64,000 nucleotides of DNA. It comes from Puccinia triticina. Taxonomy: Eukaryota > Basidiomycota > Pucciniomycetes > Pucciniales > Pucciniaceae. The translations under genes and the position numbers were made by a program. Shown piece after piece: positions 15,561 to 24,158 of the stretch. The stretch covers positions 1,736,001-1,800,000 of the forward strand of contig NC_070564.1 of assembly GCF_026914185.1 (NCBI RefSeq). The letters run 5' to 3'. The notes under the pieces were generated by a model. That model was not told the DNA's origin. It saw only the letters and a list, made by a program, of their open reading frames with translations, and ran no database searches. Numbering within the stretch: the first letter of the stretch is position 1; each line of letters starts with the position of its first letter.

Positions 15561-15776
15561 TACGGAAGCCAAGAGACGACACCAATTGCGCCAATTCAGA
15601 TTTTTTTTTGGACTGATCCTCCGAAATCCTCACACGCTACCTACATAACCTCCACAAAACATCAACACAACAACCAAGTGACCTCCCCCCCTTGCACGAT
15701 TCCCTGTTGCGATGTAAAATCTGTTCAGATATTTGTTGGTTACCTACACCAACCAGGCTGTTCTACACGTGCAACG
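15561..15776. repeat. Left TIR of the 8.6-kb element
   Basis: It pairs with 23,930-24,158. All substitutions in the outer 40 bp are CpG/CpA or CpG/TpG. Similarity ends at CTACACGTG (left) versus CTACACATG (right). Confidence 0.9.
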
Positions 15777-16150
15777 CCCTTACTACTTGTACAATATCAA
15801 ACAAACAATAGTTTCATCTGATCCCATGCCTCGGTTGAGTGAAATAATCATAATTTCTCATATCTGCCATAGTTGCAGTGTAAAATTTCTAATTTTGAGA
15901 CTTGACTCAGCTTTCCTGTGAAATGTTACTTGAAAATCTTAGTCTACTTGATCGGTAAGTTCAGAAATAGCAAGTTGACCACAGAGTGAAAAGAATCAAA
16001 CCAGAACCAAAACTGTTTAAAAAGTAGAGCAAATCTGTCTATGAAATTGCTCAACCAACAATCAGAAATAAGCTTGAGACACTAGTTAACCAGCTATCTT
16101 ATATCACTACTATTCTCTATCACCTTTGTGTCAACTTTTATTAATCAATC

Positions 16151-18540
16151 ATGCCGTCTGATTCTTGTGCAAGGTGTAGCCGTGAAACTGAATCTCTTCT
16201 GCTTGGCTGGTGTACTCTCTGCTTAGAAGAAGTGGGGGTTGATCAATCTGCCATCGAATCATCCCTGAATAATCCACCAGTCAATAGATGTACTCATCCT
16301 CCCACCAAAAGTGCTCCCAGCTTATCCTTCCCTCAGACAACAACGAATTACCCATTTCCTTTCCAAAAAAAACCTGCCACTCGTACCCCAAACAGCTCAG
16401 TCCTACGTTCACATATCCCAGCTTCAGTTATATGGTCTCAAACCCCTGCCCCAGTCATGCGATCTCATACTCCAGCCTCTGAAGAATATTTTCAGAATGC
16501 AGTCAGGGTCAAACAAAAAAAGCCAGTCGTCAATCCTTATCCCAAGAAAAAGCCGACCCAATCATCCTTCAAAACTAGTTCCCTTGCCGCAGTGGATTCC
16601 GAACGCCTGATTGACTGTGGATTTGTTCTATACATAAATAACAAACTCCAACGCAATACCGGGATTCTGAATGTGAAGCAAAAAGTTGACATTAACAACC
16701 CAAACCTCTTTCAACATATTCTGGACGCCCTCTGGGAATTATTCCTTGACAAACTTCATTCCAAGTCTCTAATTGATCAGCTACCTGAAAATTCTGAAGA
16801 CTTTGTCAGTCTTTTGCAAGGAAAAAGTCGCCTTACCACCCAAGAAGCTCTAGTCTACATCATTAAGAAATCAAACGATAGAAAGCCTGTTCAAATTGAC
16901 ATTGTATACCAACACTGATTCAGTCCTGAATCCTCTGAATACAAAAATACGTCTTCCGATGAGAACACGAACTTAACCAAGCCAACAACTCGATCTTCGC
17001 AAAAAAATACGATCTCAAAATCTGCAACCAAGCCCAAGCTGTCAACTTCGTCTTCCAGAAAAAATACCGCCTCACGCTCTCCAGCAAAATCCCAGACTTG
17101 ATCAAAGTCCAACATTAACAAGTACCTTGATATCGATTCCTCCAACAATGATATTTCTTCTGATGAAAATGTGATTTTCAAAAGGCCATCAACTCATTCT
17201 CCAGTCAAAAAAATTAGCGACTCTGAGCAGGTTACAGTTGGGGGGCAATGGGCTGCTGGTGGTCTTGCAAGTAAGTTCTGTTTTTTGGACTGATTTTGTA
17301 ATTCTAATTGTAATTACTGATTGTAATAATCACCTTTTGGATTCTCGTAGATACAATGCCACGCAGTGGAACTAAGGGTCTTTCTACCCAGTTACGAGTT
17401 CTTGGTTGTGGAAATCACCAGCTCATTGACATCGATACTGACGGATGGATTAATGCTCATTGCTTTGTATTCAAGACTTTTGCTGCCACTGAAAGTGGAA
17501 CGCTCAAGGCCGAAGTTCAACCTCTCACATTGAAAGTCTATAGTGATACAATCGTTGGTTCCGGAAGTATGCGACGTGCATTAAAAGCTGAAGTAAAAAC
17601 AATGGAAAATGGCTCTGAATGTATCAAAGAATATGTTGCGAAGATACGATACAAGGAGGATTTCCCAAACCTTACCAGCCACGCAACCAATGCACTCATG
17701 TACGAAGCAACTGGACTCCTCCTAACCCGATTCAAGGCCATCGTTTTGGAAAGTTCTTGTATTCTTCCTGCTTATAAAAAAATGGCAAAGAATTTGCAGG
17801 TTAGTGTTTTGCTTTGTTCCTATACCCCATATATAAAACTTACATCTTTTTATTTTCAGATTGTTAGGCATGCTGTTGTGGCAACGGGTGACTACAATTT
17901 TCCACATTGTGTTTACTTTTTGGAGGCAGCGCTAAAAGGAATATATGTAAAATATTCCAGTAACATTGACTTCAATGTTTCGGAAAGTCAACCTGGAATG
18001 GATCCAAGAATCTGTCAGTTGATGAATGCATTTATGCACTGGTCATTTGTTCAATCAAACGGTGAGAGGTTAATTTGTGACTTACAAGGTGTTGGTCCAA
18101 TCCTTACCGACCCACAAATCATTGATGTGGATCAAACGTAAGTGTATTTTTCCTTCTTGCTAAAACAACTGTAAACTTATCAAATTCACTGCTTCTACTA
18201 TAGGCGCTGGGCTGATGGGAATAATGCAACAGAGGGAATTGGAATGTTTCGCCAACAACATATCTGCAATGAGGTTTGTCAGAAATTACAGCTTGTGTCA
18301 CCTCTCAAGATCGGTATTCCATATGGATCAAACGGCAAACCTTCACACTTGTCAACTGTTAATCGGCCCCAAAGCTTTTCTGGACCATTTTCTTTCCCCA
18401 AGAGAACACCTGTTTGCAAAATTGAAATACAACACCATGATCCTCTGAAATCCAGTCTTTCCCATATCATTCATTTGGCAGAGGGTCAACACCCTGATCC
18501 AAACAACTTTTTCGAGCATCCTTCTACTTCGACCAACTAA
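16151..18540 (+). CDS. Alpha-kinase family protein, two in-frame TGA codons
   Basis: Probable atypical alpha-kinase (MHCK/EF2K type), a Ser/Thr kinase family that is expanded in rusts. The N-terminus has a zinc-ribbon-like CARC...CTLC (residues 6-24), then a long Ser/Pro/Lys-rich linker. The catalytic domain begins after the intron at 17,271-17,350 and spans exons 17,351-17,799, 17,860-18,137 and 18,204-18,540. Motifs: EYVAKIRY (ATP-site lysine region), then FMHWSFVQSNGERLICDLQG followed by VGPILTDPQI, and DGNNATEGIGMF with QHICNEVC, the family's C-terminal metal and glycine-rich signature. The frame from 16,151 to 17,270 is interrupted by TGA at 16,916 and 17,099, both possible C-to-T changes of CGA arginine codons. 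Either this copy is a pseudogene, or 16,151-16,918 and 17,351-18,540 are separate genes. Confidence 0.8.
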
Positions 18541-23662: not shown

Positions 23663-23929
23663 TTCTCATTGGCACACGATGGAATGTAGGTTGGCTTACA
23701 TGTAACGTAGATGGGGTGGGTACATGTGCAATTGAGTTTTATTGAAATTCACATCATGTGTTTGAGTGCGGTTCCAACAAGCTTGTTAAATTTTATTATA
23801 TATTTATTTACATATTTTACGCTTTATGCGAGTGTTTGTACATAGCAATTGTTCTAGTAAGGTACATTTGATAGAAGTTATGTAGGTACATGTGAGGTTT
23901 TTGGAGGATGAGTGAGAAAGAAAATGTGT

Positions 23930-24158
23930 CACATGTGTAGAACAGCCTGGTTGGTGTAGGTAACCAACAAATATCTGAACAGATTTTACATCGCAACAGG
24001 GAATCGTGCAAGGGGGGGAGGTCACTTGGTTGTTGTGTTGATGTTTTGTGGAGGTTATGTAGGTAGCGTGTGAGGATTTCGGAGGATCAGTCCAAAAAAA
24101 AATCTGAATTGGCGCGATGGCGCGATGGCGCGATTGGTGTTGTCTCTCGGCTTCTGTA
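23930..24158. repeat. Right TIR of the 8.6-kb element
   Basis: Inverted copy of 15,561-15,776, longer by 16 bp because of the GCGCGAT repeat at about 24,111-24,135. Confidence 0.9.

What the first reader, a model, noticed from the sequence alone, without database searches (positions are those of the whole stretch)
15561..24158. Compact mobile element carrying an alpha-kinase, a TET/JBP-like dioxygenase and a DDE integrase
Seen: clean TIRs of about 215 bp, 6-bp TSD GAGAGG, and three protein genes between them. Known: TET/JBP-like genes travel with KDZ transposons in fungi, and alpha-kinases are expanded in rusts. Here both are inside an element whose own enzyme is a retroviral-integrase-like DDE protein (CDGHDKL, SDYGTE, QKIE), not KDZ. 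A kinase plus a DNA demethylase-like enzyme as cargo could help the element escape silencing or act in the host (inference). The near-identical inner TIR and interruption of the KDZ accessory gene argue for recent mobility.
Basis: partly seen in the sequence, partly recalled or inferred. Interest (0 to 1): 0.95.

Follow-up and report, generated by a model that had tools for sequence, protein, structure and literature searches.

The report
Rust-fungus jumping gene with two passengers
This is a DNA transposon of the IS3EU kind in a wheat leaf rust genome that carries a kinase gene and a DNA-demethylase-like gene beside its own transposase; the layout was published in December 2025, and what this work adds is evidence that the kinase is the steady partner while the demethylase-like gene comes and goes.

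Summary
Window 15561-24158 is a transposon with 211/227-bp inverted repeats, a GAGAGG duplication, an alpha-kinase gene (+), a TET-like dioxygenase gene (-) and a DDE integrase gene (-). Four paralogues of the flanking KDZ-associated repeat that span the site are uninterrupted, flank matches overlapping by exactly 6 bp. The genome is taken as Puccinia triticina Pt15 haplotype A. The type is not new: Kojima 2025 (PMC12730594) describes TET+ IS3EU transposons in seven rusts, P. triticina included, with 6-bp duplications and TET between transposase and alpha-kinase. Added here: 54 of 80 genomic termini (control pattern 2) form 27 bounded intervals, 19 with perfect 6-bp duplications. All 6 intervals with an integrase hit have a kinase hit; TET is optional (in 5 of 7 kinase-integrase intervals read). 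Two related elements share 81% integrase and 82% kinase but 18% TET identity. So the kinase looks like a core component and TET like an exchangeable module. The kinase correlation leans on one pair. The family shows TCG hypermutation. The window copy's kinase gene has two premature stops before the kinase domain, so 'three genes' overstates it. No structure could be predicted.

The parts
15555..15560 (.). target site duplication GAGAGG, left
   Evidence: single copy in the empty paralogues
15561..15771 (+). left terminal inverted repeat, starts TACGGAAGCC
16145..16915 (+). N-terminal part of the alpha-kinase gene (CxxC..CxxC motif, conserved region of unknown fold); frame interrupted by TGA at 16916 and 17099
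   Evidence: continuous with the start of the kinase in the annotated protein PtA15_8A284 of the C8 copy (P0063)
17314..18141 (+). alpha-kinase domain, main part (reading frame; includes a short intron near 17799-17859, placed by eye)
   Evidence: PF02816 2.4e-31; aligns with TRPM7 kinase 1ia9 and eEF2K over about 70 residues
18175..18540 (+). alpha-kinase C-terminal exon with HxCxxxC
   Evidence: PF02816 4.3e-05, profile 153-185
18741..20024 (-). TET-like 2OG-Fe(II) dioxygenase gene, single open frame of 427 aa with HCD and downstream His
   Evidence: PF20515 7.1e-58
20535..21248 (.). tandem GC-rich repeats (spacings 110-139 bp) between TET and integrase
21691..22188 (-). integrase gene, third exon frame
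   Evidence: homologous stretch in four other copies
22228..22794 (-). integrase gene, second exon frame: DDE catalytic core
   Evidence: PF24764 3.3e-19, PF00665 1e-05 (below its cut-off); D-58-D-42-E
22823..23665 (-). integrase gene, first exon frame (ATG at 23536), weak helix-turn-helix matches below cut-off, no HHCC pattern
23932..24158 (-). right terminal inverted repeat, starts TACAGAAGCC on the minus strand
24159..24164 (.). target site duplication GAGAGG, right

Best explanation
A TET+ IS3EU DNA transposon of P. triticina. The DDE integrase acts on TAYRG..CYRTA ends and inserts with a 6-bp stagger (ends, duplications and empty sites are shown; the catalysis is inferred from the family). 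The alpha-kinase is inferred to be a core regulatory component of the element (phosphorylating the transposase or a host chromatin or repair factor), because it stays with the integrase in every bounded integrase-bearing interval and appears to diverge with it. The TET-like enzyme is inferred to be an exchangeable anti-silencing module that oxidises methylcytosine and so counters silencing and TCG hypermutation of the element.
For: Ends, duplication, genes. Empty site in the four paralogues that span it. 80 termini vs 2 for the control pattern; 26 adjacent convergent pairs within 20 kb against 1 divergent and 0 same-strand. Of 27 bounded intervals 19 have 6/6 duplications (16 of 24; window, C16, C17); wrong pairings 1 of 552. 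Kinase within 10 kb of 14 of 28 integrase-family loci against 0.17 expected, 12 of the 14 convergent; with the window's own proteins 15 of 33, 13 convergent. All 6 bounded intervals with an integrase hit have a kinase hit. TET in 5 of 7 kinase-integrase intervals read, by HMM. C17 vs C2: integrase 0.81, kinase 0.82, TET 0.18, TET orientation relative to the integrase opposite. A 4.2-kb interval with 6/6 duplication whose only hit is TET. TCG: 26 of 57 classifiable transitions between the window copy and the C8 copy, 0.81 per site against at most 0.11 elsewhere.
Against: No activity of any of the three proteins was tested. The kinase-integrase distance correlation leans on one pair: r=0.74 (70 of 40320 permutations reach it) over eight families, r=0.41 (218 of 5040) without C2. 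14 of 28 integrase loci have no kinase within 10 kb and 22 of 37 kinase loci have no integrase within 10 kb; fragments or nested insertions may explain many, but that was not shown. Four of 24 intervals have 0-2 of 6 matching flank bases. The kinase gene of this very copy is interrupted. Sequence and profile searches of the PDB found no relative of the TET protein, and the fold could not be predicted; Kojima's discussion keeps open that such enzymes modify bases in another way.
Confidence: 0.6

Rival explanations
1. Kinase and TET are both passive passengers, captured and carried along without helping transposition.
For: Broken kinase frame in the window copy; 20 of 27 bounded intervals have none of the three genes by hits, so the ends suffice when transposase comes in trans.
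Against: Kinase kept in 6 of 6 bounded integrase-bearing intervals; among the ten paired loci compared, kinase pieces are 52-67% identical apart from the near-duplicates and the C17-C2 pair, yet DLQG is kept in 10 of 10 and TDPQ in 9 of 10; HxD is kept in 5 of 5 element TET frames aligned.
Confidence: 0.15
2. The kinase and TET act for the fungus (for example in development or host interaction) and the element is only their vehicle.
For: Alpha-kinase is listed as enriched in wheat rusts (PMC5295586 Table 3, passages) and called highly expanded in rusts (PMC4469406, one passage).
Against: The genes sit inside elements with 6-bp duplications, copies are decaying, and the family bears a hypermutation signature. 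Kojima 2025 also argues against a primary host role for TET.
Confidence: 0.08
3. Chance co-insertion of unrelated genes.
For: Rust genomes are rich in TET genes (103 matches) and transposons.
Against: Same order and termini in independent elements with duplications; 14 of 28 against 0.17 expected.
Confidence: 0.01
4. A Polinton/Maverick-type element (6-bp duplications per PMC10045372; its gene content is recalled).
For: 6-bp duplication, long inverted repeats, retroviral-type integrase.
Against: Pfam found no polymerase, packaging or capsid domain in the 11 frames of 120 aa or more overlapping the element; ends and layout fit IS3EU as described in PMC10045372 and PMC12730594.
Confidence: 0.01

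Closest known systems
TET+ IS3EU transposons of Pucciniales (Kojima 2025, PMC12730594; read: abstract, sections 3.1 and 3.4, the whole discussion, figure legends, passages elsewhere; supplements not held)
   Same: 6-bp duplications, TAY-type ends, inverted repeats over 30 bp, TET between transposase and alpha-kinase, those two in opposite orientation; P. triticina is among the seven species named.
   Different: One end here is TACAG, not TAYGG. TET lies in the transposase orientation; the paper names three such families (IS3EU-7_PSt, IS3EU-3_PCor, IS3EU-6_PSt), none from P. triticina. The word 'kinase' occurs twice in its main text; in the gene-order passage no role is given, and TET-less copies with a kinase or TET replacement between sister elements are not mentioned in what I read.
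IS3EU/GingerRoot superfamily in general (PMC10045372, passages read)
   Same: TA..TA ends, 6-bp duplications, DDE integrase-like transposase without an HHCC motif.
   Different: The passages read mention no alpha-kinase or dioxygenase.
KDZ (Kyakuja-Dileera-Zisupton) elements with TET/JBP
   Same: Fungal DNA transposons carrying TET/JBP genes.
   Different: Unrelated transposase; Zisupton makes 8-bp duplications (introduction of PMC12730594). Here KDZ is only next to the insertion site.

Membership tests
IS3EU | 6-bp target site duplication | tested here: met
   GAGAGG both sides and once in the four empty paralogues; 19 of 27 bounded intervals 6/6
IS3EU | TA..TA ends (TAYGG..CCRTA in rust TET+ families) | tested here: met
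   TACGG and TACAG; the second end departs from TAYGG at one base
IS3EU | integrase-type DDE transposase without HHCC zinc motif | tested here: met
   PF24764; no HHCC pattern in exon frames 1 and 2; exon 3 not scanned
IS3EU | transposase clusters with IS3EU in a tree | not tested
   Repbase sequences not available here
TET+ IS3EU of rusts | TET between transposase and alpha-kinase, those two in opposite orientation | tested here: met
TET/JBP dioxygenase | Tet-like 2OG-Fe(II) domain with HxD..H | tested here: met
   PF20515 7.1e-58; H296 and D298 nearly invariant and a later His column in the alignment
TET/JBP dioxygenase | oxidises 5-methylcytosine | not testable with these tools
   no assay; no PDB relative by sequence or profile
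Alpha-kinase | alpha-kinase domain with DLQG..TDP core and zinc-binding H/C residues (residue roles recalled) | tested here: met
   PF02816, alignment with 1ia9
Alpha-kinase | intact gene in this copy | tested here: not met
   two in-frame TGA upstream of the domain
KDZ | KDZ transposase inside the element | tested here: not met
   no KDZ match in 15561-24158 among the listed matches (150 of 350 candidates scored, list cut); the listed one in the window is 30575-30988

The most novel reading that the evidence does not exclude
Rust IS3EU is in essence a two-gene transposon, DDE transposase plus a dedicated alpha-kinase that is required for or regulates transposition, onto which anti-methylation TET genes are repeatedly loaded, lost and swapped; part of the reported alpha-kinase expansion of rusts is then transposon-borne.
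Probability: 0.4. Interest if true: 0.6.

Novelty: new member of a known kind. Interest (0 to 1): 0.35.

Why it matters
It is an independent check within one genome, with empty sites and duplications, of a transposon type published in December 2025. It also sharpens an open question: which passenger is essential? The kinase, given no role in what I read of that paper, is the steady partner and TET the variable one. Elements with and without TET in one genome make the anti-silencing idea testable with methylation data. 15 of 37 alpha-kinase loci lie within 10 kb of an IS3EU-type integrase, so counts of rust alpha-kinases as host genes need care.

Tried and rejected
Considered and rejected: Polinton (no polymerase or capsid domain), KDZ (no KDZ transposase inside), chance neighbours.

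PDB sequence search for TET gave only matches at E 0.3 or worse, the profile none, the integrase core none. Alignment A2 gave no named domain for the kinase N-terminus; Pfam found none above cut-off in 16145-16915 or in the two homologous frames scanned. The TET lineages P1-P6 of Kojima could not be tested (no reference sequences).

Errors of mine: one search took the integrase loci as turned to the match strand, which they are not; its counts for those loci are discarded and replaced (perfect TAYRGAAGCC within 1.5 kb upstream in 9 of 30 loci, 0.2 expected from shuffles, 0 and 1 in two downstream controls; with one mismatch allowed 11 of 30, against 4.75 in shuffles but 11 and 3 in the controls, so only the perfect matches count). 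One search failed for the same reason and was redone. In one search the third integrase exon was translated in a wrong frame; one search has the right one. Searches used only part of the 103 TET rows; one search checked all 103 against the 27 intervals with the same result. Left out of the distance tests: C8b and C15 (near-duplicates of C7b and C12), C6b (mirror copy), and C5, C2:7022360, C9:4730578 and C9:4983821 (their partner kinase locus was not cut out). One search scored 97 of 205 TET candidates, so absence of TET rests only where the interval was read.

Full report
What is there. The window is G000:C7:1736001-1800000 of a 122.8-Mb genome in 18 contigs. Its C8 is 7,485,535 bp, the same as the longest contig listed for protein PtA15_8A284 of Puccinia triticina, so the genome is taken as P. 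triticina Pt15 haplotype A (the reading of 'PtA15' is mine). At 15561-24158 lies a unit bounded by inverted repeats of 211 and 227 bp, 185 of 187 inner positions identical, flanked by GAGAGG on both sides. It holds an alpha-kinase gene on the plus strand, and a TET-like 2OG-Fe(II) dioxygenase gene and a DDE integrase gene on the minus strand.

Proof of insertion. The 808 bp left of the element and the 842 bp right of it, each with one copy of GAGAGG, were searched apart. Each hit the same four other places (C3, C8, C9, C1) with the two matches overlapping by exactly 6 bases; a fifth, 136-bp left-flank match on C13 does not reach the site. So the four paralogues that span the site show it uninterrupted with one target copy.

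State of this copy. TET is one open frame of 427 aa with HCD. The three integrase exon frames are open, and D, D, E are separated by 58 and 42 residues. The kinase gene is not whole: TGA codons stand in frame at 16916 and 17099, before the kinase domain. Four other copies keep open frames of 291-363 codons there and the sister copy on C8 one of 290; the annotated protein of the C8 copy (P0063) runs from the N-terminal region into the kinase. The kinase domain itself aligns with TRPM7 and eEF2K over its DLQG..TDP core.

Relatives in the same genome. The pattern TAYRGAAGCCN7RACA occurs 80 times against 2 for the reversed control. Adjacent matches form 26 convergent pairs within 20 kb, against 1 divergent and 0 same-strand; one more convergent pair spans 42 kb. 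Flanks of 24 of these 27 were fetched: 16 have identical 6-bp duplications and 20 at least 5 of 6, against 1 and 6 of 552 wrong pairings. With the window, C16 and C17 that is 19 of 27 perfect. Four of the 24 had 0-2 of 6 and are not supported as single insertions. By hits (placed), 6 of 27 hold an integrase and all 6 hold a kinase; TET is hit in the window and C17, and found by HMM in C16; one 4.2-kb interval has TET as its only hit (67% identity, one stop inside); 20 have none of the three, 13 of them under 1.8 kb.

Kinase steady, TET variable. By family models, 14 of 28 integrase loci have a kinase within 10 kb (0.17 expected), 12 of the 14 convergent; 15 of 37 kinase loci have an integrase within 10 kb. 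With the window's own proteins: 15 of 33, 13 convergent. The two exceptions, C12 and C15, are near-identical and have kinase and integrase on one strand with no TET between. Of seven distinct kinase-integrase intervals read, TET is in five (window, C6, C17, C16, C2) and absent in C1 and C12, by an HMM built here at E 1e-4. C1:8260109-8271220 has both ends and a perfect CTGAGC duplication, all but its first 291 bp having been read. C17 and C2 share 81% integrase and 82% kinase identity, but their TETs share 18% and point opposite ways; the C2 TET is instead 48% identical to that of C16 (frames). Distances of integrase and kinase correlate over eight families (r=0.74, 70 of 40320 permutations reach it), over seven without C12 (r=0.86, 22 of 5040), over the five with TET (r=0.86, 11 of 120), but only weakly without C2 (r=0.41, 218 of 5040); integrase and TET, and kinase and TET, over five do not (r=-0.30, 94 of 120; r=-0.36, 103 of 120). 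The kinase piece compared is about 95 residues, the integrase piece about 180.

Other species. Source names place relatives together in other rusts: PGTG_17928 (TET) and PGTG_17932 (integrase), longest contig 254,338 for both; PGTG_22728 (TET) and alphaK I3, 69,795; PGTG_05029 (integrase) and alphaK I7, 1,640,743; Pst134EA_005601 (integrase) and 005604 (kinase), 5,461,712.

Hypermutation. Between the window copy and its 95.6-96.5% relative on C8, 82 transitions and 28 transversions were found in 2832 aligned columns; 25 transitions had a neighbour that also differed and were set aside. Of the other 57, 26 fall at TCG: 0.81 per available site against at most 0.11 for any other context, the mutated-side base being in the C8 copy 21 times and in the window copy 5 times. 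That is the TCG pattern cited for Pucciniomycotina in PMC12730594; the original paper was not seen. TCG is depleted in the C8 pieces (0.76 of expectation) and not in the same part of the window copy (1.01).

Mechanism. Shown: ends, 6-bp stagger, empty sites, gene set. Inferred from the family: the integrase joins ends to staggered target cuts. Inferred: TET counters methylation and with it silencing and TCG mutation, as Kojima also argues, while keeping another base modification open. Inferred and mine: the kinase acts on the transposase or a host factor during transposition. The heavier hypermutation of the C8 remnant, for which no TET hit was found nearby, fits but is one pair and proves nothing.

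Prior art. Searches: 'IS3EU' with 'transposon' (32 papers, 25 listed), alpha-kinase with transposon and Puccinia (2 papers), with transposable element, fungi and transposase, with fungi, Puccinia and expansion, at least two of alphaK, Puccinia, kinome (8 listed), 'alpha kinase' with rust, transposon and Melampsora, TCG with repeat-induced point mutation, Puccinia and basidiomycete. Kojima 2025 (PMC12730594) covers the type. Its main text uses 'kinase' twice, and in what I read it gives the kinase no role and does not say that it also accompanies TET-less copies; the supplements were not seen. Only papers under open licences are held.

Verdict. An accurate observation of a real element of a recently published type; a probable further family of it; modest new insight into which gene is the steady partner.

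Noticed in passing
G000:C2:6062121-6104175: A 42-kb interval between IS3EU ends with a perfect CCTCAG duplication, kinase near one end, integrase near the other; nested insertions or a giant element. Interior mostly not read.
   Followed up: partly
L071 and G000:C6:6247721-6260923: About 13 kb that looks like an inverted duplication of an IS3EU element: kinase, TET and integrase hits mirrored about C6:6254324.
   Followed up: partly
window 20535-21248; L070:4494-4900: Repeat arrays lie in the same slot (between TET and integrase) in the window copy and, with a different unit spaced 120 bp, in the C16 copy.
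   Followed up: no
G000 C3, C7, C9, C10 (two), C15, C16, C18 kinase loci: Eight similar alpha-kinase copies (55-58% to the window kinase); only the C9 one has an integrase hit within 10 kb, in the unusual orientation. Possibly another mobile family or non-autonomous copies.
   Followed up: no
L023, L054 (C12) and L024, L055 (C15): Kinase and integrase on one strand about 2.6 kb apart without TET between; no perfect terminus pattern in the stretch held for C12.
   Followed up: partly
window 9328-10182 (-), 32654-34192 (+), 13925-14485 (+): Other transposon remains: Tc5-type DNA-binding domain, a retroelement frame with rve and gag-pre-integrase matches, and a Pol_BBD fragment.
   Followed up: no
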